DNA of 64,000 nt, taken from the NCBI RefSeq assembly GCF_025370775.1, contig NZ_JAMXEX010000001.1, positions 124,001 through 188,000 of the forward strand, written 5' to 3'. Made by a program: the position numbers and the translations under genes. Each line of letters begins with the position of its first letter. Within the stretch, counting starts at the first letter, position 1. Below the pieces are notes generated by a model, which saw only the letters and a program-made list of their open reading frames with translations, ran no database searches and had not been told where the DNA came from. Below are positions 1 through 14,883 of the stretch, in pieces. This DNA is from Ancylothrix sp. D3o. Its GTDB lineage: Bacteria > Cyanobacteriota > Cyanobacteriia > Cyanobacteriales > Oscillatoriaceae.

Positions 1-22
1 GATTCATAGGTTTACCAACTTT

Positions 23-409
23 ATGCCCGGACAAACATTTGTGTCACAAACAGGGAGGCAGATCGGCAAGATATTAAAAGGTTGTTCTGGTGGGCTTATC
101 ATCCTAGACTTTGCCTCTGGGGAAGAGAGAAAGCTGACATATGACGAGATTGATTTGATGCAATATCAACGAGAGTGGAGACTTCCCAAAAACTGGGAAG
201 AAGGGTACAAAATTACTGGCATCCCCGGCAAGGACGCCACATATTCGGCGGTGCTTCTGTATGTTGCCGGAAGATGGGAATGCCACATAGTCAAGGGTGA
301 AATTGAATCAGTAAAAGCATTTATCGGAAAAACGCCCAAAATTTACACTTACAATGAGGCCAAAGATTGGTTGGAATCTTGTGGAGATTCGTTTTTAAAG
401 AATGAATAA
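23..409 (+). CDS. Hypothetical protein at window edge, 5' end uncertain
   Basis: I do not recognise this 128-residue protein. It is soluble, with no membrane segment or signal peptide, and is rich in aromatic residues and lysine. The ATG at 23 has no clear ribosome binding site, and the frame stays open to the first base of the window, so the gene may start further left. It is the only plus-strand gene at this end and converges with the minus-strand module that ends at 611. A strong hairpin (442-460) separates the two. It probably belongs to the same mobile element, which is an inference from position. Confidence 0.6.
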   Translation: MPGQTFVSQTGRQIGKILKGCSGGLIILDFASGEERKLTYDEIDLMQYQREWRLPKNWEEGYKITGIPGKDATYSAVLLYVAGRWECHIVKGEIESVKAFIGKTPKIYTYNEAKDWLESCGDSFLKNE

Positions 410-610: not shown

Positions 611-1084
611 TTAATCCACAGCAACAAAAGAAAGGGAAAGTTGCACAGCTTCGTTAGCACTCAAACTAGAGACACCTAAAGCACCGGAAGGGCTAATAGC
701 TATATGACAAGTCGTTACACCCCCGTTTGTTAAAAATCTAGGCGCAATAAAGCCTGCTATTTGAGCCGGTCTAAATCCTGTCGGCAAAACTAACGGAAAC
801 CCATAATCACTGAAATTAACTGAAACGCTAATATATCCCTCTACAAGCACGGTTTGGCCAATTTTTCTACATCTAGCTGGTCTATTGACAGAAAGAAGAC
901 TCCACCCTGAATTAAGACTTAGGTTAATCCATCCAGAATCTTGAAAAAAAACACTAGGTTTATTTACAATTCTTTCCCACGTTAACTCACTATCTCTAGC
1001 AATCGCCGGATCTATCTGATTCTCAGGGATTGGGCCTCTAACTCTTCTCAGCATAAATAAAACCGCCTCCCTAGGAAGCGGCAT
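611..1084 (-). CDS. Phage fibre-tip-like beta-rich protein
   Basis: About 157 residues if started at the ATG at 1084, nine bases after the stop of the upstream gene; 147 residues from the ATG at 1054. A longer frame opens from 1192 but its extra N-terminus is Cys/Arg-rich and overlaps the upstream gene by 100 bases, so I reject it. The middle reads GWINLSLNSGW, then VLVEGYISVSV, then LPTGFRP. This is the pattern of C-terminal receptor-binding domains in phage tail fibres (an LPaGyRP turn after two beta strands). It is the last gene of the minus-strand module. A hairpin with a T-rich tail at 1059-1080 covers the first codons of the longer form, which favours the shorter start. Role as a receptor-binding tip is inference. 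Confidence 0.65.
   Translation of the reverse strand: MPLPREAVLFMLRRVRGPIPENQIDPAIARDSELTWERIVNKPSVFFQDSGWINLSLNSGWSLLSVNRPARCRKIGQTVLVEGYISVSVNFSDYGFPLVLPTGFRPAQIAGFIAPRFLTNGGVTTCHIAISPSGALGVSSLSANEAVQLSLSFVAVD
1057..1080 (-). terminator. Terminator-like hairpin between two structural genes
   Basis: On the minus strand CCGCTTCC pairs with GGAGGCGG around a three-base loop and is followed by TTTTATTT. It sits after the stop of the gene at 1093-1458 and directly before the ATG at 1054. It could attenuate expression of the last gene. Confidence 0.6.
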
Positions 1085-1092
1085 AAAGTTTT

Positions 1093-1458
1093 CTATAAAC
1101 GAATTCCAGGAGCAATACCGACTTTCACAGCCTGACCTGTTCCCGCCGCGGTGCCGGCAACAATTCTGTCTCCAGTTATCCACTCGCTCCACTGCATACC
1201 AGGATCGAGACTAAAGGTGCTGTTAGTTGCGCTGGGGTTTGTTGGTGTTGCCCCACTGCCAGTGCCAACCAAGAGAAAAATAGCGGACGTTCCTTCATTG
1301 GTTATTGTTACGTGCCTAGGGGCGGTAGGCGTTGCCACAGCGGGTACCAATTCTACCCCAGCAGCAATGTTTGTGACGCTAACGGAGGTTGTGGTTGTGG
1401 CGTCGGGAAACCATTGCGTACTGTTAAAGGCTGTGTTTCGTGTTTGAAAAATCGCCAT
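1093..1458 (-). CDS. Small beta-sandwich structural protein, paralogue 1
   Basis: A 121-residue protein with no signal peptide. The core reads VTITNEG, AIFLLVGTG, then FSLDPGMQW. The same layout (xVxNxG, IxxWxG, a loop, FxLxPG) occurs in two other small genes of this module, at 2001-2279 and 9367-9672. I infer a shared beta-sandwich fold and a family of minor surface or decoration proteins. I do not recognise a named family. It follows the membrane protein gene by eight bases and is followed by the fibre-like gene. Confidence 0.65.
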   Translation of the reverse strand: MAIFQTRNTAFNSTQWFPDATTTTSVSVTNIAAGVELVPAVATPTAPRHVTITNEGTSAIFLLVGTGSGATPTNPSATNSTFSLDPGMQWSEWITGDRIVAGTAAGTGQAVKVGIAPGIRL

Positions 1459-1466
1459 AAGCTTAC

Positions 1467-1823
1467 CTATGTAAAATCGCTGAACGCCCTTGTAAAATCA
1501 TCACCGCTATCATTAGTGGACTGCCTTTTGATGTACCCGTGATGTACTGATAAGAAACCTTCAATATCTGCTATTTTGCTTGCATTCTCAGCTTGCTTGA
1601 ACTTAGCTATAGATGCTAGGGACTTTAACTTAAATTCTAGGTTGTTGATTTCAGTTGCTAGATTATCTATGCTCTTCTCTAAGTCTCTCTTGTTTCGGTG
1701 TTGAGCATTAACTATGTTCACGATAATAGTTACAACAGCAGCCGCACCTACAATGAAAGCGAAAAATTCAGTTGCCGACATTTTAGATAGGATATCGGCA
1801 AGAAATAAGGGGTGGTTAATCAC
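1467..1823 (-). CDS. Membrane-anchored coiled-coil protein (holin-like topology)
   Basis: 118 residues. After a short N-terminus there is one hydrophobic helix (about residues 20-40, rich in A, V and I), then a charged heptad-type region (about 45-95) predicted to form a coiled coil. There is no signal cleavage site. Single-span proteins of this size occur near lysis or membrane-attachment genes in phages, but no specific family can be assigned. It lies in the minus-strand module, eight bases before the next gene. A GC-rich hairpin precedes it around 1855-1873. Confidence 0.6.
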   Translation of the reverse strand: MINHPLFLADILSKMSATEFFAFIVGAAAVVTIIVNIVNAQHRNKRDLEKSIDNLATEINNLEFKLKSLASIAKFKQAENASKIADIEGFLSVHHGYIKRQSTNDSGDDFTRAFSDFT

Positions 1824-2000
1824 ATCGTTAAATACTTTGGTTGGTGAGTTTTTAAGGGAGGTTTGAGCCTCCCCTTGACAATAGTTGACGTTTATTGAAA
1901 CAAAGACTCATTATTTCATGGCTAATACTCTCCTCAAAAGACCGTGCTTTTGGTAATGAATAGATTGCGCTTAACTAACGTCTAGTTATTAGCAAACTGA

Positions 2001-2279
2001 CTACTTAGAGAAGGGTTCAAACTGGATACTTGCCAAGCCCTGACCTTTCTTTGTAGCCATTTTAATAGACTGACCCTTATAAATTCCCGCCTCACTCTCG
2101 CCTGGCTTCAAAGAAAAGCGATGATTGCCTATTGCGGGATTAGCGATTCCTAGCCATACAAATATCTCGGCGTTGCCAGTATTTTTAACGGACAATAATT
2201 CGAGACTCTTAGGGGGTTCCACAGCAGAGAGAGTAAATACCCCCGACTTGATATCGGGGACTTCAAAGGTGTGCGTCAT
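2001..2279 (-). CDS. Small beta-sandwich structural protein, paralogue 2
   Basis: 92 residues, no signal peptide. The core VKNTGNAEIFVWLG followed by FSLKPGES matches the pattern of the genes at 1093-1458 and 9367-9672. The start lies six bases after the stop of the 281-residue gene, so the two are probably co-translated. Likely a minor virion or surface component; function is inference from context and paralogy. Confidence 0.65.
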   Translation of the reverse strand: MTHTFEVPDIKSGVFTLSAVEPPKSLELLSVKNTGNAEIFVWLGIANPAIGNHRFSLKPGESEAGIYKGQSIKMATKKGQGLASIQFEPFSK

Positions 2280-2285
2280 AAACTA

Positions 2286-3131
2286 TTAGGGAATCGGTGC
2301 GGACAGCAATTTCTCAATAAACTTCATATTTTCGCCTTGGTACAAGAGGCTGTTGACCGAGGGTACGGCTGCAAGCAATTCTCCGACGCTGATAATAAAA
2401 TCTTCGTCATTCTCACATACCGGCATCTTGGATTGCTGACTCCGCACCGCCCCGTCTAATGCGTCCGTCCAGAGGCTTTTAACTACATAGTGTCGCGGCT
2501 CACTTGGGGAATTATCGTTTGTTCGCGGGCTACTGGTGTTGTCAATACCAACGGCAACAGCATCAGTGTAATGAGGGGGCGCCGCCGGTGGCGTTACACT
2601 TGTCTGCATTGAAAATTTGTCGATTTTTTCCCGCCCATCGTCGCTGTCGTATTCCATACGTCCAGAAAAGCGGCGCCGTTGGTTTAGACGCGGTGCGTCC
2701 ATAGTCGTCACTTTGTCGGTTGGCAATACGAGCCAGTCGTAGATATCTCGCCAACGCTCACCCACAAGGTCAATTCGATTGACACGGTAAGAGCCGATAG
2801 CTTGAATGGCTCCGCGTACAGCTTCTGCGGTGGGGATTATGTTGAGCCTGTCGCGGACAATAATCTCAATCGTTGCCCTGTTTCCCGCCGGATCTCGCAT
2901 GGTGAATTTTAATCGCCGGGGGTCGAAGATTTTCTCCAAAACGTCTTTCACCAGCTTAGGGGCCAGTTCGGGGGTGTAAGGGGTTGCCCCGGCAGCACTC
3001 GCTATTGGTGCCATTTGAGCGTGACTAAGTCCCGGCCACACATTGTATCTGCCCACCCAATCTATCGACAATCCTATGTCCGTTATATAAGTGGAGGTGC
3101 CTTCAAAAACATAGACAACTTGATCAGCCAT
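2286..3131 (-). CDS. Unrecognised element protein, 281 residues
   Basis: I do not recognise the family. The N-terminal 170 residues look folded, with alternating strands and helices. A polar linker around residues 175-215, rich in P, T, N and S, separates a C-terminal helical part. There is no membrane segment. The start codon overlaps the last base of the upstream gene (3131), indicating translational coupling with that 127-residue protein. It is one of the larger proteins in this part of the module and could be an assembly or structural component. Confidence 0.6.
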   Translation of the reverse strand: MADQVVYVFEGTSTYITDIGLSIDWVGRYNVWPGLSHAQMAPIASAAGATPYTPELAPKLVKDVLEKIFDPRRLKFTMRDPAGNRATIEIIVRDRLNIIPTAEAVRGAIQAIGSYRVNRIDLVGERWRDIYDWLVLPTDKVTTMDAPRLNQRRRFSGRMEYDSDDGREKIDKFSMQTSVTPPAAPPHYTDAVAVGIDNTSSPRTNDNSPSEPRHYVVKSLWTDALDGAVRSQQSKMPVCENDEDFIISVGELLAAVPSVNSLLYQGENMKFIEKLLSAPIP

Positions 3132-3514
3132 TAGCTATCACCCCCTTCGTTGGATTCAGCCAGCTTCTTTGCGTTTTCGATGGCGGGGATGCTATCAGCT
3201 TTCTTCGCATTTTCGGTGGCGAGAAGACCATCAACTCCGTACATTCTGTCAGGTAGGCTGGGGAGTTGCTGGCCTTCTTCTGGGGTCATTATGTAGGTGT
3301 AAACAATCTTCCAGCGCTTTGCGTCTTTCGGGAAAGACAGCATCTGCGCTCTTCCACCACCTTCGATAGAGAGCCGCTGCCCCCGATCTTGTGGGAAACC
3401 TTGATAAAAGTTTTCCAGTATTGCTTTTAGTAGATACTTGGGGTTTTTAGCTTGCTCTGCCGTCAGCCCTAGTTCTTCTAGGGTGAAGCTCACTCCTGTT
3501 TCGTTTAATTCCAT
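3131..3514 (-). CDS. Unrecognised element protein, 127 residues
   Basis: The N-terminus (VSFTLEELGLTAEQAKNP) resembles a short helical motif and the rest is mixed alpha/beta with a charged low-complexity C-terminus. No family is recognised. It is the first gene of the left minus-strand cluster; a GAGGATG ribosome-binding-like stretch precedes the ATG. Its upstream region is the large inverted repeat at 3744-4024, so its promoter may be controlled from there. It is coupled by a one-base overlap to the next gene. Confidence 0.6.
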   Translation of the reverse strand: MELNETGVSFTLEELGLTAEQAKNPKYLLKAILENFYQGFPQDRGQRLSIEGGGRAQMLSFPKDAKRWKIVYTYIMTPEEGQQLPSLPDRMYGVDGLLATENAKKADSIPAIENAKKLAESNEGGDS

Positions 3515-3743
3515 TTGTCATCATCCTCAAGATACAACCCTACGATAAACGCCGAACGCTCGCAAAATCAAGGGTTTGAGGTAAAAAACTCCGAGTCGTA
3601 TCTTAGAGGCAAAGGTGGTTTTAGGTATCGATCCGCTACTGTCCTATGGACTGGCACAAAGTGAACCATCGCTGACAACATTCAGTTCAAAGTCGGCACC
3701 GGCTCACTCAAAACCATCTAGCTTGACTGTGACAATTTCAACT

Positions 3744-4024
3744 GTCACAAAGTGATCCACCCCCCACCAGTGGATCACTTGTGGATCACTTTCTCAAATC
3801 CTTACAGGGCAAGGTTTACAGCTAGAGGTGATCCACTGATCCGCCTTTTTTGAATTTTGAAAATTTTTATTTTCTGTGTATCATTTGATACATCTGTTTT
3901 AAAAAAATATTTTTCAGCGTTACCCCGGATCAGTGGATCACTTTGGACTAAAACTTGCTCTGGGCAAGGGTTACAGAAAGTGATCCGCAAGTGATCCACC
4001 CTCCCCAGTGGATCACTTTGTGAC
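3744..4024. repeat. Large symmetric inverted repeat, candidate replication, partition or packaging site
   Basis: Two arms of about 100 bp (3744-3845 and 3926-4024) are imperfect reverse complements. Both contain several copies of GTGGATCACTT or its complement and start or end with GTCAC/GTGAC. The centre is AT-rich and holds a palindrome, TGTATCATTTGATACA (3877-3892). Its midpoint (3884.5) coincides with the midpoint of the outer arms (3884). The extra repeat GTGACA/TGTCAC (3729-3748) flanks the left arm. The site occupies a 569-base gap with no gene, between a ribbon-helix-helix-like gene and the structural module. Iterons, AT-rich core and dyad symmetry are typical of origins and partition sites; the assignment is inference. 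Confidence 0.8.
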
Positions 4025-4048
4025 AGCCCAAGGACAGTTAGCCGGCAA

Positions 4049-4077
4049 TAAAAAACCGCCCTGGTCGGGGGGCGGCA
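4049..4077 (-). terminator. Rho-independent terminator of the small regulator gene
   Basis: On the minus strand CCGCCC pairs with GGGCGG and is followed by TTTTTTA. It lies directly downstream of the stop at 4084, and insulates the regulator from the inverted repeat. Confidence 0.8.
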
Positions 4078-4083
4078 CTGAAG

Positions 4084-4302
4084 TTAATTTTGGTTTTCGG
4101 GTTCGGGGTCTGGGAGGCTATCGATCCAATCTCTAAAAACGTCCCGCCAATTCTCCACTCCATCTAGTTTCCGCTTTTGCTGTTCGCTTATTCTCACCCC
4201 TACCTGTACGTTAAGCGGATCTTCTCCTTTCACCTTGAATCCATACGCCTTGATATCGGGATTGCCACCAGGGCGACCACTACGGCCTTTAACTCCTGTC
4301 AT
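4084..4302 (-). CDS. Small ribbon-helix-helix-like regulator
   Basis: 72 residues. The basic, Gly-rich N-terminus (GVKGRSGRPGGNP) is followed by a strand (LNVQVGVRIS) and two helices (EQQKRKLDGVENWRDVFRDWID). This order, beta strand then helix-helix, is that of Arc/CopG-type DNA-binding proteins; the call rests on pattern only. The gene is monocistronic, with its own promoter (TTGGTT, 17 bases, TATAAT) and an 8-bp inverted repeat at the predicted start of transcription, so autoregulation is likely. It could also bind the repeats at 3744-4024. Confidence 0.6.
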   Translation of the reverse strand: MTGVKGRSGRPGGNPDIKAYGFKVKGEDPLNVQVGVRISEQQKRKLDGVENWRDVFRDWIDSLPDPEPENQN

Positions 4303-4312
4303 GTTTATAGTG

Positions 4313-4370
4313 TGAGTATCTTGCTAAAAACTGATACTCATATTATAATAGGTTCAAGCTTAAAAACCAA
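4313..4370 (-). promoter_or_regulatory. Promoter and operator of the 72-residue regulator
   Basis: Read on the minus strand, TTGGTT (4365-4370) and TATAAT (4342-4347) are separated by 17 bases. TGAGTATC (4313-4320) and GATACTCA (4333-4340) form a perfect 8-bp inverted repeat over the expected transcription start, as an autorepressor operator would. Confidence 0.7.
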
Positions 4371-4531
4371 CCCCTCCAAAACGCTGAGAGATGGCAGCCT
4401 CAGTAGATAAAGACCTGCCTGGTAAGGGATGGTAAACGCTCAAAACCCCCGAAAACGCGAAAGACGCTGCTAGACCGATCAAAGTTAACAGCGCCTTTCT
4501 AAACCAAGCGGTAAAACCGCATTGCATACTT

Positions 4532-4885
4532 ATGTTACCAAAACAAACACGACGGCGCAATTTTCTGCGCGGCTTACTTTCCGGTGGCTCCTTGGCTGCC
4601 GTGCCTCTCATCCTACCTTCTGCATCCCTTCCCCTTCCCAAGGGATTGCCGGCACCTAAATTCAAGATCGGGGATACCGTTTACTCCGAATTCATCCTTG
4701 ACACCCCCCGCCCCAGTAAAACCGCGTGGTGGAAAGGCGTTATCTGTGGCATCATTTGGAGTCCTGAAGATATTGGCGAGTGGGGTTATGTGTGCCGATG
4801 GAATGAAACCTACTATGACGGCTACACTACCGAGTCTGACTTAGAAGACGACATGGCGCGGTTTAAACAGGAAGGGAAACTATGA
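4532..4885 (+). CDS. Tat-signal small protein with SH3-like domain
   Basis: 117 residues. The N-terminus has a twin-arginine pattern (RRRNFLRG) followed by a hydrophobic stretch, so export by the Tat system is plausible. The rest (FKIGDTVY, KGVICGI, GYVCRWNETYYDGYTTESDL) aligns by eye with the next gene: a GD turn, a KG/TG strand, GY.Y.W and a final acidic helix-like segment. I infer a small SH3-like barrel duplicated in tandem. First gene of a three-gene plus-strand operon; its stop overlaps the next start (ATGA). Confidence 0.65.
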   Translation: MLPKQTRRRNFLRGLLSGGSLAAVPLILPSASLPLPKGLPAPKFKIGDTVYSEFILDTPRPSKTAWWKGVICGIIWSPEDIGEWGYVCRWNETYYDGYTTESDLEDDMARFKQEGKL

Positions 4886-5115
4886 AAACCATGCCTCCTG
4901 ATTGGCCGATGCCTAAGTATTGGTTTGGCGACCGCCTTTGCCTGACCGAGCAGATTGCCGATGACCTGGTGATTGTTGAGCGAACCGGCATTGTAACCGG
5001 CATCAAGTACAACCCAACTCACGGCTACAGCTACTCACTTGAGTGGGACAACTTTCCTTCTGACACCTTTACCTACGCAGAACACGAACTCATAACCGAG
5101 GGGGAATTAGTGTGA
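4882..5115 (+). CDS. Small SH3-like protein, paralogue without signal
   Basis: 77 residues, lacking the Tat signal of its neighbour but sharing the pattern FGDRLCL, TGIVTGI, YSYSLEWDN, then YAEHELI. It overlaps the upstream gene by four bases and the downstream gene by four (GTGA), so the three are translationally coupled. No characterised family is recognised. The cytoplasmic and exported copies may bind the same ligand in two compartments; this is speculation. Confidence 0.6.
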   Translation: MKTMPPDWPMPKYWFGDRLCLTEQIADDLVIVERTGIVTGIKYNPTHGYSYSLEWDNFPSDTFTYAEHELITEGELV

Positions 5116-5471
5116 AACGACTCAACAAAGCCACTACAACCCGCGTCTCATCAAAGGCAAAGCAACCCAAGAAAATCTCCTTAACCCCCCTTGAGGAGCG
5201 AGTGCTTAAGCTTTTTATTGACCTTGAAACTGACTGGGTTGCTATCACTCAGATAGAGCCAGGCGATGAGAAGTTGTTAATCAAAAGCCTACGTTCTCTT
5301 GAGCGTAAAAACTTCATCACCTACTATGCCTCTGATTATGAAGTTGAGCTTTTGAAAGACGGCGCTCAATGGCTGAAGGATTGGGGGCTAATAAAGGATT
5401 TTGAGATTTTCAGTCCGCGTAAGTCTCCGCCCTATATCCCTTCCTATGTCTGTGTAGTTGCTTGGGAATAA
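5112..5471 (+). CDS. Winged-helix-like small protein
   Basis: 119 residues, GTG start within the GTGA overlap with the preceding gene. A basic N-terminus (about 25 residues) precedes LTPLEERVLKLF and a helix-rich segment ending in LRSLERKNFITYY, which looks like a winged-helix fold with a beta wing. A DNA-binding role is inference from this pattern. Last gene of the operon, followed by a clear terminator. Confidence 0.6.
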   Translation: MKRLNKATTTRVSSKAKQPKKISLTPLEERVLKLFIDLETDWVAITQIEPGDEKLLIKSLRSLERKNFITYYASDYEVELLKDGAQWLKDWGLIKDFEIFSPRKSPPYIPSYVCVVAWE

Positions 5472-5484
5472 TTGATGGGGTTAG

Positions 5485-5507
5485 AAGCGGGTTTATCGCC
5501 CGCTTTT
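5485..5507 (+). terminator. Rho-independent terminator
   Basis: AAGCGGG (5485-5491) pairs with CCCGCTT (5499-5505) around a seven-base loop, followed by TT. It ends the three-gene operon at 4532-5471. Confidence 0.8.
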
Positions 5508-5625
5508 ACTCGCACTTAGACAAAGCATGAGGATGTTAAAAAAACGGTCGGTAGAGTCGAAATGACGGGTTATATCAGGTTTTGCTTGTAGGTTCTGGGG
5601 GGTTGTCACTTGCCGACAATTGACA

Positions 5626-5835
5626 TCAAAAAGGCGGCAAATCCTCTACAAAAAACTTATGCTTATAAGCAACTCCTTTTAACTGTCTTTTCCTTACCAG
5701 CCTTAATATCTGAGAGCGACTTAAAAAGTATTTTTCCGCATAAGAATCTAAGTCTATACAAGGGATAGGCTCGGTTGGGTGTCCTGCTGATAAATAAGCG
5801 GTTTTTGAGTATAACCGCCTACTTTTCTTTGGCAT
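5626..5835 (-). CDS. Excisionase-like HTH protein
   Basis: 69 residues, very basic at the N-terminus. The segment YFLSRSQILRLVRKRQLKGV followed by KHKFFVED matches the winged-helix pattern of excisionase/MerR-type proteins: helix-turn-helix, then a strand presenting a residue ahead of an acidic end. The start lies three bases after the stop of the 802-residue gene, so it is expressed with the structural genes. It may act as recombination directionality factor for the integrase or as a regulator; neither is shown. Confidence 0.6.
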   Translation of the reverse strand: MPKKSRRLYSKTAYLSAGHPTEPIPCIDLDSYAEKYFLSRSQILRLVRKRQLKGVAYKHKFFVEDLPPF

Positions 5836-5838
5836 AAA

Positions 5839-8247
5839 TTAGCGCTCCGCTGGTACAAATGCAAGGACTGTTTCGGGGTCGCCCGTAGTAGGATTCAAGT
5901 CAGCTATAGCAGCACGAACAGCGCGGACTTCTCGCACTTCTGGTTTGCGGGGTCTTCCACCCGTACCAATACGAAAATCACCAACTTTCTCTAACAAAGA
6001 GTAAGATTCCATCATTGCCAGTACGCGGCGGGCTTCACCCTCATCCCTGAAATAACCACCACTCCAAACCTTAGAATTTTGCCAAATTATTTTGCCAAAA
6101 ACGGAGCCCTTCCAAAATCTAAATCCCTCGAAATCTTCCCAGACTAAACCGGGCCGTGGCTGAGGGATAGTCATGTGCCACAAGCTACCCTCTTGATAAG
6201 GATAAAATCTCACTTCTACTAGCGTGAAAGTTAATTGTCGGACGATTGGGAACTCTTCAAGATGTGGGTCTGCATATACAGGATAAGCGCCACCACCACC
6301 GTGCTTACAAACCTCTGTGATAATGTATTTATTGAGGTTTGCAAGGGCGTTAATTTGATTTTGTATGCCTACTAACCCGATACCTTCATAGCGGTTTTCT
6401 TGGATGAGTATATCGCCATTTTCGTCTGTCTCACATAACGCATAATCAAGAGCACCCGCTATCGTGTCCTGCTGTGGCTGCAAACCGTTACAGATGTGGT
6501 TAAGGATATTCTTAGATATCTCCATATTGATATCAATCATTTGCTGCAAACCTTTTAAACCTTTACCCTTAAAGGCGTAGGAGGTTGCAACATCACGGCA
6601 AACTATCTCGCCCTCACCCTCAATATCAGGAAACTCTATCTCTAGCTTTTCCCTAATTTTCTTAACATTGTCCCCAGTTTTCTTACATTCTTCCTCTGAT
6701 TTCTTATGACCGTCCCTGCATTTTTCTACCTCTTTCTTAATGGGTTCAAGGTCAACATCCATCTCAATACTAGACTGACCTTGAGGGATATTAATCTCTA
6801 TTTCTTTGTTGCCAAGGTTAATGTCAAATTCTAAACCTTTCCTACCTAAATCAATCTCAAAATCTAGCTCTTTCTGTCCAAGATTAAAGTCCATCTCCAT
6901 CTGTTGATTAGGGTTCTCAAAGAACGCCTCTAACAACTGAGGGATAATTGCAGTTTTTGTTAGCTTCTGTGGAATAACGGCGCTAGAAGTCAGTGTTTTA
7001 GGTAGTACAGCCGTAGAAGTTAATGTCTTTGGTAGCAGAGCAGTCGAAGTTAATGTACTTGGCATTAAAGCCGTAGAAGTCAATGTACTTGGCATTAAAG
7101 CCGTAGAAGTCAATGTACTTGGCATTAAAGCCGTAGAAGTTAACGTGCTTGGTATTAACGCCATAGAAGTAAGCGTTTGTGGTATCTGCACCGCACTGGT
7201 GAGCTTTAAACCGCTGACTACATTGTGAACCTGGTCAATCAAAAAGCTGGCGAATGTTGTTGCCGCAATAATTGGCTCAATTAAGTTTGTAACCCCGGTC
7301 ACGGTTGCCACACCAATTCCTACTACTGCTTTGAGGATGGGGTCAAGATCCGGCTCTTTTGCCTCTTGTTGCTCTAAATTGTTTAGACGTTGCCAGATAG
7401 GAACATTAAGATTTACACCTCCCAAACCGGCAGGATATTGACCTTTAGGTGTAGCCCCTGGTTGTGGTGGTTGCTCAATTCCGGGGGGAGCGAAAGGTTT
7501 AGTCGGACTTGGGCTAGTTGGCGATGATGGGCTACGAGTTGTACCAGGTGATGAGTTGGGAGATGGTGCCGGTGTGCCTGCCGGGGATTGAACAGGTGAA
7601 CCGGTAGGCGATGACTGAGGAAACCTAGTCGGGCTTCCCAGTGGGGTCTTGGTCGGTGCTGGTGAGGTTGGAAAATTAATAGCGGGCCCTGGCAGGAAGC
7701 CAGAGGTCATTTTTTCAGTTTGTGGCTTATTTGGTCTGCCGGTTTGCCAGTTGAAATCATCTAAAAATTGTTTACCTGCCGGGTCTACCCAGTTGGCAAA
7801 GTTAGATATTCCCTCACCGATAGCAACCCCCAACCCAATGCCGCCTAAGGCACCCCCAACCCGACCGACCAACCCGCCAACTTTACCAGCAAGACCGGCA
7901 GCCTTTGCGATGACATCATCAATATTAGAACTGACGGCCTTACCCACCCCAGAAGCTATTTCATCTCCAAATTGTGACAACTGTGAGAGGTTGTTGGCTC
8001 GCGGGCTGATAGACTTTGTAATCCTTTCAACCCCTAGATTATTTTTCGCACCAAAGCTAAAGTTATTACCTCTGTGTGGTGATGTAATACCTTGAGATTT
8101 TGATAAATCAGAAACACTAAAACTCGAACCGCTAGGCTGATTTGCAACACTAGATGGGGGGTTAAATGAACCTGTATTCCTCACTGGTTGACTTGATGGA
8201 GGTATTCTCGGAAATAACATCGGTGGCGCAGTGGTATAGTTAATCAT
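5839..8247 (-). CDS. Large repeat-rich structural protein, 802 residues
   Basis: No family recognised. Order of parts: a disordered Ser/Pro-rich N-terminus (1-95); a Gly-rich hydrophobic stretch (about 115-145); a Pro/Ser/Thr-rich linker (about 180-275); a hydrophobic segment (about 310-345); nine decapeptide repeats of the form TLTSTALMPS (348-437); five 11-residue repeats of the form LDFEIDLGRKG (450-504); a charged Cys-containing helical region; and a C-terminal domain with aromatic-rich strands and two CxxG-like sites. Repeats of this regularity suggest a fibrous or solenoid shaft. It is the largest gene of the module and could be a spike, fibre or scaffold. It follows the 360-residue gene by 34 bases. 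Confidence 0.7.
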   Translation of the reverse strand: MINYTTAPPMLFPRIPPSSQPVRNTGSFNPPSSVANQPSGSSFSVSDLSKSQGITSPHRGNNFSFGAKNNLGVERITKSISPRANNLSQLSQFGDEIASGVGKAVSSNIDDVIAKAAGLAGKVGGLVGRVGGALGGIGLGVAIGEGISNFANWVDPAGKQFLDDFNWQTGRPNKPQTEKMTSGFLPGPAINFPTSPAPTKTPLGSPTRFPQSSPTGSPVQSPAGTPAPSPNSSPGTTRSPSSPTSPSPTKPFAPPGIEQPPQPGATPKGQYPAGLGGVNLNVPIWQRLNNLEQQEAKEPDLDPILKAVVGIGVATVTGVTNLIEPIIAATTFASFLIDQVHNVVSGLKLTSAVQIPQTLTSMALIPSTLTSTALMPSTLTSTALMPSTLTSTALMPSTLTSTALLPKTLTSTAVLPKTLTSSAVIPQKLTKTAIIPQLLEAFFENPNQQMEMDFNLGQKELDFEIDLGRKGLEFDINLGNKEIEINIPQGQSSIEMDVDLEPIKKEVEKCRDGHKKSEEECKKTGDNVKKIREKLEIEFPDIEGEGEIVCRDVATSYAFKGKGLKGLQQMIDINMEISKNILNHICNGLQPQQDTIAGALDYALCETDENGDILIQENRYEGIGLVGIQNQINALANLNKYIITEVCKHGGGGAYPVYADPHLEEFPIVRQLTFTLVEVRFYPYQEGSLWHMTIPQPRPGLVWEDFEGFRFWKGSVFGKIIWQNSKVWSGGYFRDEGEARRVLAMMESYSLLEKVGDFRIGTGGRPRKPEVREVRAVRAAIADLNPTTGDPETVLAFVPAER
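6736..6900 (-). repeat. Five 11-residue coding repeats
   Basis: Residues 450-504 of the 802-residue protein: units MEMDFNLGQKE, LDFEIDLGRKG, LEFDINLGNKE, IEINIPQGQSS and a last IEMDVDL unit. Alternating hydrophobic and acidic residues suggest a beta-solenoid or amphipathic strand stack. The DNA copies have diverged more than those of the adjacent decapeptide array. Confidence 0.75.
6937..7206 (-). repeat. Nine 30-bp coding repeats (decapeptide array)
   Basis: Nine in-frame units encode decapeptides from KLTSAVQIPQ through TLTSTALMPS to KLTKTAIIPQ (residues 348-437). The central three units are identical at the protein level and nearly so in DNA, showing recent expansion. Confidence 0.85.
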
Positions 8248-8281
8248 TTTTCACCTTTATTTTCTCGCTAATGTACCTAGG

Positions 8282-9364
8282 TTATTTATTTTCGCTATTG
8301 ATGTTTAAAGGTGTTAATTCTCCCCCCGTCCAGATGTTGTTTTCTAACCTATCAATTCGTTCTATAACCCTATCATCGTCCTTAATATCAAATGCTTTTA
8401 ACTGCTCTTGAAAAAAAACACATTGCCTGTAAGCCGTGTCGTTGATGTGTTCTTTTATTCTAGCCTCCGATTCTTTGATAAGTTTTTCTACTTTTTCCAT
8501 GTAGGCTTCCATTAAAGCCGCCATAGCTTCTATACAATCGCAACAATCTTCTTTCATGCCGTTATCTCCATCTTGAATAATACTATCACCCCCGTTATCT
8601 ATTGCAGAACCCCAGACCAACTGTTGATAGAAAGTCGAGGTTTCTACGAAACCCTCATCAGCCATCGGATGCCTCCTAAAGCTATAGCTATCGGTAATAA
8701 CTGAGGCGGCATCATCCCAAGAGCCGTAAAAAAATTGAAACTGATGGAAAAAGGGCTCTATTTCCACCCCTGTTTCGTAAACCGTACTGTATCTGTTATT
8801 TCGACGTGGAGTATCACTTCTTTCTATTAAATTCAAATTTTCGTCTAGGACAAAAAAATAATGCGATCTGGATCTGTGGGCAACATTAGGGAGACCTATT
8901 CCAGGCCAATACCCATCGTATCCATTAGCCGTTATTACTACTACTAAATTATTTCCATCTGTGAAGCTTCTACTAAATGATTTTGTGGTTTTTTTTGTAT
9001 AGGGTCCGACTATGTTCATAGGCGGAGCCGCAACAAAACCACTATAACTGTAAAACCCAGCGAATAACCAGAGACCTATAGTATCTGGGGGTATATTAGG
9101 AATAAGAGGCTCTGGAGGTATCGGGTCGTCGTTTGTTTCGGAGCTAGGCGAATCGTCGCCTATTGATTTTGATTTCTGAGGTTTTATACACTCCACTGGG
9201 TTCCTATTTCTTTTTATCCCCCTCAAATCCAAATCCTCTGGCAGGAAATATGATTTAACTTCACATTCTAAGCCAGGTAATAAAATATCAATTAACTCAC
9301 CTCTACCGTCGGGAAATAAAGGAGTTAGCAAAATCTGACCAGGGAATTTTTCTCGGCAATCCAT
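8282..9364 (-). CDS. Unrecognised element protein, 360 residues
   Basis: No family recognised. The N-terminal 65 residues are followed by an acidic Pro-rich linker (about 70-95). The middle (about 100-245) is rich in aromatic residues and strands. Near residue 270 there is a CCDC motif (EDCCDCIEA), after which a long charged helix (about 280-340) suggests a coiled coil. Two residues separate its start from the stop of the upstream small beta protein. Likely a structural component by position; there is no enzyme motif. Confidence 0.6.
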   Translation of the reverse strand: MDCREKFPGQILLTPLFPDGRGELIDILLPGLECEVKSYFLPEDLDLRGIKRNRNPVECIKPQKSKSIGDDSPSSETNDDPIPPEPLIPNIPPDTIGLWLFAGFYSYSGFVAAPPMNIVGPYTKKTTKSFSRSFTDGNNLVVVITANGYDGYWPGIGLPNVAHRSRSHYFFVLDENLNLIERSDTPRRNNRYSTVYETGVEIEPFFHQFQFFYGSWDDAASVITDSYSFRRHPMADEGFVETSTFYQQLVWGSAIDNGGDSIIQDGDNGMKEDCCDCIEAMAALMEAYMEKVEKLIKESEARIKEHINDTAYRQCVFFQEQLKAFDIKDDDRVIERIDRLENNIWTGGELTPLNINSENK

Positions 9365-9366
9365 AA

Positions 9367-9672
9367 TTAAACTGATAAATAAGAAACAACCAAAGCGTTA
9401 GCCCCTAACTCGGACGATAAACCTATTGATAGCCTAGCTTCCGAATCTGGTAGAAAGTGGGTAAAACCCCCGCCAATCACTGAAATTAACTGAGTGCCTA
9501 CCCAGATATTAATGTCATTCATTCCTAGGTTTTGGACTGATAACTTAACTCTGTTATTGTTGGCTGCAAGTGTAAAAATAGATGCCGTCAATCCCTGCTG
9601 AAAAGATGTAATCGTCCTAATAATAGGTATGTTGGCGGGTAACGATTTTAGATTATTGTCGTGTTGAATCAT
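9367..9672 (-). CDS. Small beta-sandwich structural protein, paralogue 3
   Basis: 101 residues. The core LSVQNLGMNDINIWVGTQ, then FTHFLPDSEARLSI, has the same order as the genes at 1093-1458 and 2001-2279 (VxNxG, IxxWVG, loop, FxLPxxE). The start overlaps the stop of the 181-residue gene by four bases (ATGA). Three members in one element suggest specialisation after duplication. Confidence 0.65.
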   Translation of the reverse strand: MIQHDNNLKSLPANIPIIRTITSFQQGLTASIFTLAANNNRVKLSVQNLGMNDINIWVGTQLISVIGGGFTHFLPDSEARLSIGLSSELGANALVVSYLSV

Positions 9673-10214
9673 GGTATTACCACCAAATTATGATCCTGCA
9701 AGAACTGACCGGATCTTGTGCCGTACCCCGTCACAGAAATAAAATCCGAACCTGTTAAAAGCCCATACCCTCGGTCAATTTGACGTGCTACTATTTCCCA
9801 GCCTTGTGCTAGTTTGAATTTTTCGGCTTGGGTTAGATATTCAAACAAATTGATTAAGTAGCCAGGGCGGACGGGAAAAAAATCATAGCCGGCGGTTTTG
9901 CCTACCCCAGGCGTATAAGCTGCTCCGATGGGTTGAATTCTTAATTCAAGTCCTACCTTGATACCGGCTCGAAAGAATTCGCGTTTTTGTCGTCTAGCCA
10001 TAGTTGAATCCCTGGGGTCATCAACTGGTAAAAAGGCTTCTTCTTTTGATGGTATTTCAGCCCAACCTTGCAAAGCGTAGATACTGTATTGGTCGGGTAC
10101 GGCAACACCTAACACTGTTTGGGATGTGTTATTGGCTATTAAAGAAACTTCGGTAGTTTGCGCTGTTAAAGTTGCCCTGATTTGTACGATTTTTTCTGAG
10201 GTATCTACTGCCAT
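9669..10214 (-). CDS. Unrecognised element protein, 181 residues
   Basis: No family recognised. The N-terminal half is strand-rich and ends in a conserved-looking basic segment (MARRQKREFFRAG); the second half mixes helices and Gly-rich turns. It has no signal peptide, and no repeats. It is packed between the Gly-rich 362-residue protein (two bases upstream) and a small beta protein it overlaps. The compact folded character and the position make it one of the better candidates for a main shell or tail-type protein, but this is only inference. Confidence 0.55.
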   Translation of the reverse strand: MAVDTSEKIVQIRATLTAQTTEVSLIANNTSQTVLGVAVPDQYSIYALQGWAEIPSKEEAFLPVDDPRDSTMARRQKREFFRAGIKVGLELRIQPIGAAYTPGVGKTAGYDFFPVRPGYLINLFEYLTQAEKFKLAQGWEIVARQIDRGYGLLTGSDFISVTGYGTRSGQFLQDHNLVVIP

Positions 10215-10216
10215 AG

Positions 10217-11305
10217 TTATCTCATAATAGACTGTTGTCTATTAATTCGCGGATCTAATACGCGAGAACTCTCCGATGAAATTCTAGGCGTAAAAGGCTT
10301 TAGATTAGCGTTCAAGCCTCCTCCCAAACCTTTCGATCTTTGTTCAAAAGAAACGTCCTCTTGATTTCTATTTAAAAAACCTAGATCGGGTTCTAATCCA
10401 AGACCTTTGAGTATTCTGGCATCTGTTACTTGTTGTTGTCGGTTTTGTCTATTGAAATGCCCATCTATCACAGCCTCGCCGTACCTGGAGAACTGCTCGT
10501 TAGTTTGGCCAGTTGGGCCGACTCTGTTGGGGTCATCTGGGATAACTCCCAAGCCTTGCCAAGCTCCCCTAAAGAAGTCTTGACCCGTATTCCAAGCGCT
10601 GCCAGCGGCTTTGCCAATACTCTCACCAGCGCCTTTTAATCCTTGTCCGAAGGCGTAGCCCGTGTCATTAGCAGAATTGCCGGTTTTGCCTATATTAGAG
10701 TTGGCTGTACTTGACTTACCCCCGCCGCCACCAACCTTAGAACCGCCACCGCCCTTTAAGCTATTGCCGAATTCCTGAGCCTTCCCTGATATATAGCCTT
10801 CTGGGTTATTTAAGAATTTCTCCGACTCCGCCTTAAATTGCTCTGAACCCCTCAATATCGCCTCGTCTCTGGCTGCCTGTCCTTTTGTTATTTGTTCAGC
10901 CCTAGCCTCATCGTAAGGGCCATATATATTTTGTATAGCCTGATTTAGTGTTTGCTTTGATTTAGCATCTGCTATCATCTGAGCCTCTTGTGAAGCTTCC
11001 CAGGGCTGATAAGGATAATACTGGTTTGGATCTCTGAGGTTAGGTACAACGCCTGGGGGTAAGGGTTGCCCTGTTTTTGGATCCATTATGATAGGCTCGC
11101 CGTGTTCTAGGTTTGCGGTTACTACCATTGATTGACCGTAGGAACCCAAAGGGTAGTGAGTGCCATGTTGACCTTGTACGGGCCCACCACCGCCGCTGGC
11201 GTAGCCACCACCACCCATTGACCCGCCGCCACCATAAATAGGTGTACTTTGTCCTGCCATTGGGTTTGCCGGGGCCTGTGCGTATCCTGATGCTTCAAGA
11301 GCCAT
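10217..11305 (-). CDS. Gly-rich element protein, 362 residues
   Basis: Low-complexity protein: a Gly-rich N-terminus (GGGGSMGGGG-type runs around residues 25-45), a charged helical segment (about 105-170), a second Gly/Ser/Asn-rich stretch (about 180-240) and a polar Arg/Gln-rich C-terminus. No catalytic motif or membrane helix is visible. It resembles assembly or scaffold proteins in composition only. It lies eleven bases after the 149-residue gene. Confidence 0.6.
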   Translation of the reverse strand: MALEASGYAQAPANPMAGQSTPIYGGGGSMGGGGYASGGGGPVQGQHGTHYPLGSYGQSMVVTANLEHGEPIIMDPKTGQPLPPGVVPNLRDPNQYYPYQPWEASQEAQMIADAKSKQTLNQAIQNIYGPYDEARAEQITKGQAARDEAILRGSEQFKAESEKFLNNPEGYISGKAQEFGNSLKGGGGSKVGGGGGKSSTANSNIGKTGNSANDTGYAFGQGLKGAGESIGKAAGSAWNTGQDFFRGAWQGLGVIPDDPNRVGPTGQTNEQFSRYGEAVIDGHFNRQNRQQQVTDARILKGLGLEPDLGFLNRNQEDVSFEQRSKGLGGGLNANLKPFTPRISSESSRVLDPRINRQQSIMR

Positions 11306-11315
11306 AAAAACCTCC

Positions 11316-11765
11316 TTATTTCTTCACAGATGAATCAAATACAACGCCGCCAAAGGTGTACGTTTGAAAGTTGCTATCAAATTCTGTAGGGTTTTTTAAC
11401 CTGTCAGCTTGAGTATTTGTTACCCCGTAATTTTGCTGAACGCCAAAGCTTGAGTTATTGGTAATCTGGTTTGGTTTGGCTGTATTTGCATTACCGCTCA
11501 CATTGGTTTCTATGTCGCCCTGGGGTGCTTCGGTTGACAGCCTTAACTTAATTCCCCCGGTGGGAATTGATATCTTTTTTGTGTATGTTGTAGCCTCCCC
11601 CTCCGCATTTTTCTGTGTGCTTGGGTTGCCTCCGATATTACTGCCTTGGCTGTTGTTCATTGAACCGCCTACAAAGTTAAAGCCCCCATTTGTTACTGAT
11701 TGCACACCTTGAGAACGGTCTACGGTGAAATTAGAAATGCTACCGAAAGATGGTGCCAGCCTCAT
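11316..11765 (-). CDS. Asn/Ser/Gly-rich element protein, 149 residues
   Basis: No recognised domain. Composition is dominated by N, S, G, T and Q, with a folded-looking C-terminus (TYTFGGVVFDSSVKK) and a central strand-rich part (KKISIPTGGIKLRLS). Starts three bases after the stop of the 83-residue gene. Likely a minor structural or adaptor protein by context. Confidence 0.55.
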   Translation of the reverse strand: MRLAPSFGSISNFTVDRSQGVQSVTNGGFNFVGGSMNNSQGSNIGGNPSTQKNAEGEATTYTKKISIPTGGIKLRLSTEAPQGDIETNVSGNANTAKPNQITNNSSFGVQQNYGVTNTQADRLKNPTEFDSNFQTYTFGGVVFDSSVKK

Positions 11766-11768
11766 TTG

Positions 11769-12020
11769 TTAACCTCCAGAATCACAACTTGAACTACTGC
11801 AATCACAATCTGAACTGCCGTAATCTGTATTTATCCAAACACTGTAATCGTACGATTCTTCATCGTTCAGGCTGTACTGAAACCTTGCTTTAATTTCTTC
11901 ATCATCTTGTTGGGTCTGTGGGCTTTTATTTTTTCTGGAATTTGGCAATGCGCTCGGAGAAAAGGCGGGCAAAAAGCAAGAGTCGCCAGAATTAAAAACA
12001 AAAGCTGTATCGAACATCAT
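11769..12020 (-). CDS. Small protein with Cys/Ser-rich tail
   Basis: 83 residues. The C-terminus SSDCDCSSSSCDSGG holds three cysteines in a Ser/Asp/Gly context, which could bind metal or crosslink. The tail superficially resembles a peptide-natural-product core, but no modifying enzyme is nearby. The start overlaps the stop of the preceding gene (ATGA-type). Coupled expression with the paralogous pair upstream is therefore likely. Confidence 0.55.
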   Translation of the reverse strand: MMFDTAFVFNSGDSCFLPAFSPSALPNSRKNKSPQTQQDDEEIKARFQYSLNDEESYDYSVWINTDYGSSDCDCSSSSCDSGG

Positions 12021-12373
12021 ATCAAGGATGGATTAGGCATCATAGCTTCAAAAACGTTCACTACCTGCATCTGAAAAAGGTACACCATAGCAGTTTTCAT
12101 AACTCCATCAACTGACCTGCTAGATAGTGAAATGTCGGGCCCTGCTATAGCTAGTTGACTGTCGTTGCTGGTGTCCTGTCTTTCACCTGTTCTTAAAACG
12201 AGGGAGAGCATAACCGACTCTGCTGTATGTGGCCCCACCCCTACTAGGGCCGGCCATCTGGGGGGTGTAGCATTAGACGTTAAATCTTGTGGGTAAAAAG
12301 TGATGGCGCCGGTTTCAGGATCTTGTGTCGCTCTGTCACCAAAAAATTCAGGTAAAGCTCTATCTACTGCCAT
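12017..12373 (-). CDS. Structural-module protein, tandem paralogue B
   Basis: 118 residues. The stretch AESVMLSLVLRTGERQDTSNDSQLAI and the end MMPNPSLI align with the preceding gene (SESLFLALYMRAMRNQDQSPDSQL; end LFPNPSSI). The two are therefore tandem duplicates of one small fold. No signal peptide; family unknown. Confidence 0.65.
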   Translation of the reverse strand: MAVDRALPEFFGDRATQDPETGAITFYPQDLTSNATPPRWPALVGVGPHTAESVMLSLVLRTGERQDTSNDSQLAIAGPDISLSSRSVDGVMKTAMVYLFQMQVVNVFEAMMPNPSLI

Positions 12374-12388
12374 AGTTATTGACTCCGA

Positions 12389-12730
12389 TTAAATGCTAGA
12401 TGGGTTAGGAAATAGGGAGAGAGTGTCATCAACTCGCACTATTAATTGCGATGTGTAAAGCCTTTGATATTTGGAGAATGAAAAATCAAGTGTCATTTCA
12501 AAAGGTGTTAGCTTTAGTTGACTGTCGGGTGATTGGTCTTGATTTCTCATTGCTCTCATGTATAAGGCAAGAAACAGTGATTCACTCGTGTTATCAGCAG
12601 CCGGGGTGAATGTATATGAGGGGTTAAGTTCAACAGGGGCAACTAAGTCAGATTTGAGTATTATTAGCTGCGTTTCTGTCTGCGATGAACCTTGCCCAAA
12701 AATAGCTTGTAGGGGTGGATTAGAAGCCAT
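12389..12730 (-). CDS. Structural-module protein, tandem paralogue A
   Basis: 113 residues from the ATG at 12730, chosen because GGAG lies seven bases upstream; a longer frame from 12763 lacks a ribosome binding site. It is the first gene of the long minus-strand module (12730 to 5626). Its C-terminal half and last residues (FPNPSSI) match the next gene, showing tandem duplication. Function unknown. Confidence 0.65.
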   Translation of the reverse strand: MASNPPLQAIFGQGSSQTETQLIILKSDLVAPVELNPSYTFTPAADNTSESLFLALYMRAMRNQDQSPDSQLKLTPFEMTLDFSFSKYQRLYTSQLIVRVDDTLSLFPNPSSI

Positions 12731-12950
12731 TTCTATCTCCCCTGTCTGCGAGAGCCGCAACAAAGCTTAGCCCTAGTACGCAGATATTGAGGAGCATAAG
12801 CGCGCATCCTAAACTTAGAAAGGATATTGCTAAAGGCTTGAGTTCTTCTATCATTTGCGTTCAAGGATGTGTGATTAATTTGAAAGTAACTGATTTTTAG
12901 CTAAAATAAAATTAAATCTTGCACCATTTTTTGCACCACTGGCAGGTTTT

Positions 12951-14735: not shown

Positions 14736-14738
14736 GAT

Positions 14739-14868
14739 TTCTACCAATTTTCTACCAATTTTTTGCAAAGCCTAGGATTTGTAAGGCTTTTAGGAGACAA
14801 AATTCTACCAATTTTCTACCAATTCTCTACCAAATTGGGTTATTTGGGCTCTTGTTTTTCTACCAATG
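14739..14868. repeat. Direct repeats TTCTACCAATT between integrase and tRNA
   Basis: Six copies of TTCTACCAATT or a close variant start at 14739, 14750, 14803, 14814, 14825 and 14858. Copies within the first pair and within the triplet are spaced exactly 11 bp, one helical turn. A related CTCTACCAACT occurs inside the tRNA. The layout resembles arm-type integrase binding sites beside an attachment core; that role is inferred. Confidence 0.8.
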
Positions 14869-14883
14869 AACCCTGAAAACAAT

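What the first reader, a model, noticed from the sequence alone, without database searches (positions are those of the whole stretch)
611..12730. Virion-like gene module with no hallmark viral genes
About fourteen compact minus-strand genes with overlapping starts and stops encode Gly-rich, repeat-rich, beta-rich, fibre-like and membrane proteins, the texture of a phage structural operon. I cannot find terminase, portal, capsid, tape measure, replicase or lysin signatures. It may be a non-tailed virus, a satellite, or a non-viral surface assembly.
Basis: partly seen in the sequence, partly recalled or inferred. Interest (0 to 1): 0.75.

Follow-up and report, generated by a model that had tools for sequence, protein, structure and literature searches.

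The report
Unrecognised provirus family in cyanobacteria
The genes belong to a 24 kb mobile element parked in a tRNA gene of a cyanobacterium; relatives of its unfamiliar particle-like genes, some beside cell-wall-cutting enzymes, occur in other cyanobacteria, and a linked gene type sits on two circular plasmids, so it is probably one of an overlooked family of bacterial viruses whose shell protein is still unknown.

Summary
The operon is real, but split by a duplicated plus-strand cassette. It lies in a 23.8 kb element bounded by 44-bp identical att repeats at tRNA-Ala, with an integrase and, mostly left of the window, a 1159-aa D5-type primase-helicase; 'no replicase' is a window-edge artefact. 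No capsid, portal, terminase or lysin was recognised in it. The 281-aa family matches 17 of 388 genomes of the order (10 of them not profile seeds), the 802-aa C-terminal domain 11; of its 5 non-seed genomes 4 also have the 281-aa family, 3 on one contig. Three of seven related loci carry recognised peptidoglycan hydrolases (GH24, GH19, M15). Two relatives have att repeats at tRNA-Asp. In two same-family genomes the same tRNA-Ala site holds elements with a P-loop ATPase and a second module type; its marker domain occurs in 54 of 388 genomes and on two circular plasmids (20.76, 20.80 kb). Three proteins tested match none of 50,697 phage records. Best reading: a modular, unrecognised provirus/phage-plasmid group with its own virion module; this copy may be defective. 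Capsid and shape are unresolved (both structure models poor). A helper-dependent satellite is the main rival.

The parts
1..409 (+). C-terminal end of the 1159-aa D5_N/DUF5906 primase-helicase (gene at L002:14930-18409, mostly outside the window)
611..1192 (-). 193-aa ORF (start uncertain), C-terminal 120 aa resemble phage minor-tail C-termini
   Evidence: phrog_3971 7.3e-9, phrog_3639 minor tail 4.2e-7
1093..1458 (-). 121-aa small beta-type protein, by eye like the 92- and 101-aa ORFs
   Evidence: no Pfam/PHROG match
1467..1823 (-). 118-aa membrane-anchor plus coiled-coil protein (my family g, by eye)
   Evidence: only sub-threshold Pfam matches
2001..2279 (-). 92-aa small beta-type protein (by eye)
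2286..3131 (-). 281-aa protein, family b: tandem duplication of a ~130-aa domain; profile matches 17 of 388 genomes of the order, own genome and other seeds included
3131..3514 (-). 127-aa protein, tentative family a (same place upstream of b as the 112-aa ORF of L012)
   Evidence: weak similarity
3740..4040 (.). iteron-like direct and inverted copies of a GTGATCCAC-type repeat
   Evidence: seen by eye; not counted against chance
4084..4302 (-). 72-aa small protein, relative of the 74-aa ORF beside the other repeat array (L002:9516-9740)
   Evidence: no Pfam match
4532..5471 (+). three-gene plus-strand cassette (117, 77, 119 aa) that splits the operon; near-identical second copy at L002:9979-10921
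5626..5835 (-). 69-aa ORF (not scanned)
5839..8247 (-). 802-aa protein, family h: Pro-rich N-terminus, hydrophobic stretches, 11-residue repeats, conserved C-terminal domain (5842-6270)
8282..9364 (-). 360-aa protein; the 300-aa ORF of L012 stands in the same place
   Evidence: synteny by eye
9367..9672 (-). 101-aa small beta-type protein (by eye)
9669..10214 (-). 181-aa protein; 35% identical to the 188-aa ORF of L012, 26% to the 183-aa ORF of L010
10217..11305 (-). 362-aa Gly-rich protein; one copy in its genome; 264-aa Gly-rich ORF in the same place in L012
11316..11765 (-). 149-aa ORF
11769..12020 (-). 83-aa ORF with a Cys/Ser-rich tail
12017..12373 (-). 118-aa protein, family a
   Evidence: aligned with L012:13643-13993
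12389..12763 (-). 124-aa ORF (an internal ATG near 12730 is a likely start), family a
   Evidence: aligned with L012:13275-13616
13620..14768 (-). tyrosine integrase with Arm-DNA-binding domain; 51% identical to the integrase at the same site in G007
14881..14924 (.). att repeat, 44 bp identical to L002:9104-9147; overlaps the 3' part of tRNA-Ala (14883-14955, minus)

Best explanation
It is an integrated provirus, possibly now defective, of an unrecognised, modular group of cyanobacterial temperate viruses/phage-plasmids. The integrase recombines a 44-bp core in the 3' end of tRNA-Ala(CGC) (repeats shown; activity inferred). The excised circle is replicated by the D5-type primase-helicase, probably from iteron-like repeat arrays (inferred). 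The minus-strand operon encodes the particle (inferred): in typical members one domain is used four times (281-aa tandem protein plus two single-domain paralogues), with repeated ~115-aa proteins, small beta proteins, fibre-like C-termini, and a long protein with hydrophobic stretches and a conserved C-terminal domain that may be a penetration or tape-like component. In several relatives a peptidoglycan hydrolase may open the cell, and in several a P-loop ATPase, not recognised here, may load the DNA. The structural module is exchangeable: an element with a kindred integrase at the same tRNA site carries a second module type joined to this one by the long protein's C-terminal domain.
For: att repeats and tRNA; integrase; D5_N/DUF5906. 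Recurrence: 281-aa family in 6 of 386 phylum genomes (five-row profile) and 17 of 388 order genomes (eight-row profile; 7 of the 17 are its seeds). The 802-aa C-terminal domain in 11 of 388 (6 are seeds that were picked beside the 281-aa gene, so their pairing is by construction); of the 5 others 4 have the 281-aa family, 3 of these on the same contig. Recognised hydrolases at L023 (GH24 7e-42, M15), L011 (M15 1.5e-13), L022 (GH19 1.5e-8) and, second type, L028 (GH24 6e-49). Two elements with att repeats at tRNA-Asp, 27.7 and 27.1 kb. Same tRNA-Ala site with second-type genes in G005 and G007; G007 integrase 51% identical. Second-type marker domain in 54 of 388 genomes and on circular plasmids of 20,803 and 20,757 bp. 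Link between the types: hhalign E 3.6e-7. G020 has both types side by side. Domain reuse.
Against: No capsid, portal, terminase, lysin or separate P-loop ATPase was recognised in the window's element. No particle, excision or infection is shown. No match in phage records for three proteins, and no relative of the 281-aa protein in viral contigs, which also fits a non-viral element. Structure models have mean pLDDT 51 and 44, so no fold supports a virion role. The operon is split by an inserted cassette. Most of the 802-domain/281-aa pairing rests on profile seeds; 7 of the 17 genomes with the 281-aa family have no match to the 802-aa C-terminal domain, G478 has the domain without the family, and in G543 they lie on different contigs. 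In L009 and L010 no lysin was noticed by eye (not scanned); L012's candidate is sub-threshold (E about 0.03). The G005 ATPase's resemblance to a large terminase is weak and partial (2e-5), and relatives of the G008 ATPase lie on 43 plasmids, so it may have a plasmid role.
Confidence: 0.6

Rival explanations
1. A helper-dependent satellite: the element integrates and replicates itself, makes its own spikes/fibres/lysis parts, but is packaged in the capsid of a co-infecting tailed cyanophage.
For: Integrase plus primase-helicase or, in G339, a VapE-like protein is the usual satellite replication kit (recalled); compact size; no capsid or terminase recognised; tRNA integration.
Against: The structural module is large (about 10 kb here) and the three proteins tested have no match in 50,697 phage records, where helper relatives might be expected; several relatives carry their own lysins and some an ATPase.
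Confidence: 0.22
2. A tail-like or contractile/injection particle (tailocin-like) or another cellular surface assembly carried on an integrative island.
For: Fibre-like C-terminus with minor-tail matches, W..l.gkP repeats in L067 (phrog_1954 virion structural protein 1.8e-4), lysins in relatives; no capsid found.
Against: Sits in elements with integrase, own replication protein and att repeats; second-type relatives on circular plasmids; no sheath, tube or baseplate family was recognised among the ORFs scanned; repeated att cores about 21.5 kb apart in G007 point to mobility.
Confidence: 0.08
3. A decayed remnant of a known virus group whose hallmark genes have been lost or have diverged beyond recognition.
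For: Operon split by a duplicated cassette; no ATPase or lysin recognised in the window's copy.
Against: Homologous genes are open and in similar order in distant genomes; the 281-aa family is open at 18-26% identity to the window's copy, so it was kept by selection for long. In the relatives only selected ORFs were scanned for hallmarks, so this is a partial argument.
Confidence: 0.1

Closest known systems
Temperate tailed phages (Caudoviricetes) / prophages
   Same: tRNA-site tyrosine integrase, primase-helicase, endolysin-type enzymes in some relatives, fibre-like C-terminus
   Different: no HK97 capsid, portal or large terminase recognised in the window's element; att-bounded sizes here 23.8, 27.1 and 27.7 kb
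Phage-plasmids
   Same: second-type long protein sits on circular 20.80 and 20.76 kb plasmids that also have an annotated integrase and an ATPase gene
   Different: known phage-plasmids carry recognised phage structural genes (recalled); here the matched gene and most others are annotated as hypothetical proteins
Phage satellites (P4-like, PICI, tycheposons; recalled)
   Same: tRNA integrase plus D5/VapE-type replication protein, compact size
   Different: large own structural module, lysins in relatives; no helper-redirecting gene recognised (not specifically searched)
Tailless dsDNA phages with double-jelly-roll capsids (tecti-, cortico-, autolykiviruses; recalled)
   Same: small genome, lysins and membrane proteins in relatives, a separate P-loop ATPase in some; a domain-duplicated structural candidate
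   Different: the only model of the duplicated protein (pLDDT 51) shows mixed alpha/beta, not jelly rolls, but is too poor to decide

Membership tests
Integrative mobile element (tyrosine recombinase, tRNA site) | integrase adjacent to tRNA and direct att repeats at both ends | tested here: met
   44-bp identical repeats 23.8 kb apart
Integrative mobile element (tyrosine recombinase, tRNA site) | circular excised form | not tested
   no reads available; circular plasmids carry second-type relatives
Caudoviricetes prophage | HK97 capsid, portal and large terminase genes recognisable by sequence | tested here: not met
   none in Pfam among 20 window and 9 further element ORFs; none in PHROGs for the 11 ORFs scanned; strongly diverged forms would be missed
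Double-jelly-roll tailless phage | double jelly-roll major capsid protein | tested here: inconclusive
   281-aa model pLDDT 51, best PDB match Z 3.8; other candidates not modelled
Double-jelly-roll tailless phage | FtsK/HerA-type packaging ATPase | tested here: inconclusive
   none recognised in the window's element; P-loop proteins (by eye or family match) in G005, G007, G008, G411 and pMIC7113.08, class not established
Phage satellite (P4/PICI-like) | integrase plus primase-helicase replication module | tested here: met
Phage satellite (P4/PICI-like) | mobilisation depends on a helper phage | not testable with these tools
   needs induction experiments
Tycheposon | shared gene families with described tycheposons | not tested
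   only a literature listing was seen; no reference set compared

The most novel reading that the evidence does not exclude
The module encodes a virion architecture unlike known ones: a cyanobacterial virus group, whose second-type marker domain alone occurs in 54 of 388 genomes of one order, with a shell built from a repeatedly used, tandem-duplicated ~130-aa domain and/or the ~115-aa repeated family rather than an HK97 or jelly-roll capsid.
Probability: 0.25. Interest if true: 0.93.

Novelty: new variant of a known kind. Interest (0 to 1): 0.74.

Why it matters
If right, a common group of cyanobacterial temperate viruses and phage-plasmids has been missed because the structural genes tested match little in phage libraries. 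The C-terminal-domain marker (second type: 54 of 388 genomes; the module around it was read only at G005, G007, G020 and one plasmid) makes the group searchable. Two circular plasmids in named strains (Allocoleopsis franciscana PCC 7113, Tolypothrix sp. PCC 7601) make the particle question testable at the bench.

Tried and rejected
Led nowhere: tblastn of the 281-aa protein in phages and plasmids; viral-contig scans with the 281-aa protein or its alignments and with L012's C-terminal domain; the family-f scan gave one 172-kb contig with an isolated relative. PDB profile searches gave nothing credible (best E 0.036). AlphaFold models of the 281-aa protein and of the 802-aa C-terminal domain were poor; the VIA second look at the first had best Z 3.8, and families absent from that list are not excluded. 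The second model was not searched for that reason. Five records (four plasmids and the 172-kb contig) have no match to the 281-aa profile (which itself warns that an empty answer shows nothing); one of the plasmids carries the second-type long protein. In PHROGs only one of ten relatives' proteins (the G008 ATPase) matched, and none of the seven family-f members.

Considered and rejected: 'no replicase' (window-edge artefact); one uninterrupted operon (split); homology of the 192-aa ORF of L028 to the 215-aa ORF of L049, first suspected by eye (BLASTP E 4.3). A jelly-roll capsid for the 281-aa protein is not supported by its low-confidence model but not excluded. Literature: searches were seen as listings with abstract starts only; no paper was opened; none listed appears to describe these modules. 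No paper holds 'pMIC7113'. This covers only that open-access library.
Full report
WHAT IS THERE. The window lies at G000:C1:124001-188000. From 611 to 12763 the minus strand carries a tight series of 16 ORFs. It is interrupted between 3514 and 5626 by a small minus gene and a plus-strand cassette of three genes, which has a near-identical copy left of the window. The named relatives are cyanobacterial MAGs (Microcoleus, Myxosarcina, Coleofasciculaceae); their genomes are listed as of the same order as the window's genome (matched by me through contig length and coordinates).

ELEMENT BOUNDARIES. A tyrosine integrase (13620-14768) abuts tRNA-Ala(CGC) (14883-14955). A 44-bp stretch at the tRNA's 3' part (14881-14924) is repeated exactly at L002:9104-9147, so the element spans about 23.8 kb, of which 8.9 kb is left of the window. 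That part holds a 1159-aa protein with D5_N (3.7e-7) and DUF5906 (5.6e-11) domains, a 549-aa protein, a ribbon-helix-helix-like protein just below the Pfam cut-off, and small ORFs.

RELATIVES OF THE OPERON. The 281-aa protein matched 5 of 100 relatives including its own genome; a five-row profile 6 of 386 phylum genomes, and an eight-row profile 17 of 388 order genomes. Of these 17, seven are seeds of the profile (G000, G008, G020, G026, G028, G054, G411) and ten are new. In L012 (G008) the gene order is similar by eye: homologues or same-place counterparts of the 124, 118, 362, 181, 101, 360, 802 and, on the other strand, 281-aa proteins, beside an integrase and tRNA-Asp. G008 and G411 have copies of a 25-bp tRNA-Asp 3' end about 27.7 and 27.1 kb apart.

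PAIRING OF TWO FAMILIES. The C-terminal domain of the 802-aa protein is found in 11 of 388 genomes, 10 of them among the 17 above. Six of those ten are seeds, chosen because the domain lay beside the 281-aa gene, so they prove nothing. Of the five non-seed genomes, four also have the 281-aa family (at 17 of 388, about 0.2 would be expected by chance): G467, G564 and G592 on the same contig, G543 on another contig; G478 has only the domain. Seven of the 17 have no domain match at that threshold.

LYSINS AND REPLICATION GENES. L023: Phage_lysozyme 7e-42, Peptidase_M15 6e-12, and a VapE-like protein 2e-72. L011: Peptidase_M15 1.5e-13. L022: Glyco_hydro_19 1.5e-8. L021: Prim-Pol 1.3e-23. L028 (second type): Phage_lysozyme 6e-49 and AAA_25. 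So 3 of the 7 related first-type loci read (L009, L010, L011, L012, L021, L022, L023) have a recognised hydrolase. L012 has a 147-aa ORF with only sub-threshold L,D-transpeptidase-type matches (0.03), L021 a like ORF that was not scanned; in L009 and L010 I noticed none by eye and scanned none. L067 (second type) has a C39-like peptidase (3e-16) that also matches a phage endolysin family (4e-11). Different hydrolases in the same setting are what exchangeable phage lysis genes look like; this is inference.

DOMAIN REUSE. The two halves of the 281-aa family align with each other (hhalign E 4e-11, 17 sequences). A ~120-aa family next to it aligns with the first half (E 4e-6) and a ~140-aa family with the second half (E 2e-5). 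These E-values are for single comparisons. A ~115-aa family recurs by eye two or three times per element (weak). By eye I did not recognise the two single-domain paralogues, nor the families I call e and f, in the window's own element; no profile search for them was run there.

A SECOND MODULE TYPE. The tRNA-Ala region was sought in 8 genomes of the family: 7 match. Besides G000, a second copy of the att core on the same contig is seen in G005 (18.5 kb apart) and G007 (two further copies, 21.5 kb steps); G001, G002, G003 and G004 show the tRNA without one, and G006 (66% complete) has no match. G005 and G007 loci encode an integrase beside the tRNA, a P-loop ATPase (by eye), a 506-aa long protein with hydrophobic stretches and a C-terminal domain, and a 217-aa protein. 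G007's integrase is 51% identical to the window's (G005's was not compared). G005's ATPase has weak partial similarity to a large-terminase family (2e-5), and its 235-aa ORF has fibre-type repeats; G007 has a DUF3854/D5 primase. The second G007 copy was located by att core and; its ORFs were not listed. The long protein is homologous to genes of L028 and of plasmid pMIC7113.08, and its C-terminal domain aligns with that of the window's 802-aa family (E 3.6e-7 over about 97 columns). G020 carries both types next to each other: the 870-aa ORF of L022 and the 273-aa ORF of L028 share 41% over 165 aa. A four-row profile of the second-type domain matches 54 of 388 genomes (42 of 149 genera), including a second locus in the window's own genome (C21); the genes around most of these were not read. 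With G007's long protein only two of 72,556 plasmid records match, both circular and almost equal in length: 20,803 bp (Allocoleopsis PCC 7113) and 20,757 bp (Tolypothrix PCC 7601). Equal size fits a packaging limit, but two cases prove nothing.

ATPASES. G008's 598-aa ATPase matches phrog_29669 (6e-101, unknown function), has no tblastn match in phage records but relatives on 43 cyanobacterial plasmids. In the three of the four opened plasmids other than pMIC7113.08 I saw no sign of the module in the annotation, and their ORFs were not read. So that ATPase may have a plasmid role and is not by itself evidence for packaging. G411 has a different P-loop protein. None was recognised in the window's element, nor among the listed ORFs of the G339 locus, an element of perhaps 14 kb whose ends were not determined.

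MECHANISM. Shown by sequence: integration site, integrase, replication protein, conserved module, lysins in some relatives, circular replicons with second-type genes. Inferred: excision and episomal replication, particle assembly, fibre-mediated adsorption, a penetration or tape-like role for the long protein, lysis. Unknown: capsid, genome form in the particle, packaging motor of this copy. The window's copy may be defective (split operon, no lysin or ATPase recognised).

STRUCTURE ATTEMPTS. The 281-aa model (pLDDT 51; core of the first half about 70-79) suggests repeated mixed beta/alpha units, without a credible match (best Z 3.8). The C-terminal domain model is worse (pLDDT 44). I draw no fold conclusion.

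VERDICT. A real and probably viral module in a modular, unannotated group of cyanobacterial elements. Confidence 0.6 for a virus with its own particle, 0.22 for a helper-dependent satellite. Novelty is rated as a new variant of a known kind (temperate virus/phage-plasmid) because no new virion is shown; a new virion architecture is the bold reading (0.25). The correction of the pairing count did not change these odds, as the non-seed genomes still show it.

Noticed in passing
window 4532-5471 and L002:9979-10921: A three-gene cassette (first protein with a weak twin-arginine-like N-terminus) is present twice in the element, nearly identical, each copy beside its own small minus-strand gene and its own repeat array; purpose unknown.
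   Followed up: partly
L002:9330-9475 and L002:17196-17342: The GGTAAGCC-type repeat array of the left copy recurs, inverted and 96% complementary over 101 nt, inside the reading frame of the primase-helicase gene; possible origin or regulation by iterons within the gene.
   Followed up: partly
L002:1-4618: Outside the att repeat, to the left, lie genes that by eye resemble phage tail or injection-system parts; one of them scanned in Pfam gave no match above cut-off. Not part of the element.
   Followed up: no
G007:C35, G652:C81, G660:C186: Second-type long-protein genes occur as equal-scoring pairs 18.0-21.5 kb apart, suggesting tandem element copies; att copies at the tRNA were seen only for G007.
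   Followed up: partly
G000:C27:16443-16491 (L069): A further copy of the tRNA-Ala att core in the window's genome, near an ORF that by eye looks like an integrase (L069:18220-18885); possibly a remnant.
   Followed up: partly
G000:C21:39247-39753: The window's genome has a second-type long-protein gene at another locus.
   Followed up: no
L046:9818-10249: A relative of family f (HWQxxP motif) sits alone in a 172-kb IMG/VR contig.
   Followed up: partly
L047, L048, L049, L050 and other plasmids: 43 cyanobacterial plasmids carry relatives of the G008 ATPase; in the four opened it is preceded by several hypothetical genes in a similar order by eye; an unexplained plasmid operon.
   Followed up: partly
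G517:C1, three of four matches; G591:C1: Second-type long-protein matches with in-frame stops, probably decayed copies.
   Followed up: no
L022:5550-6206: A family-2 glycosyltransferase gene lies inside the structural gene series of G020; possibly a cargo or surface-modifying gene.
   Followed up: no
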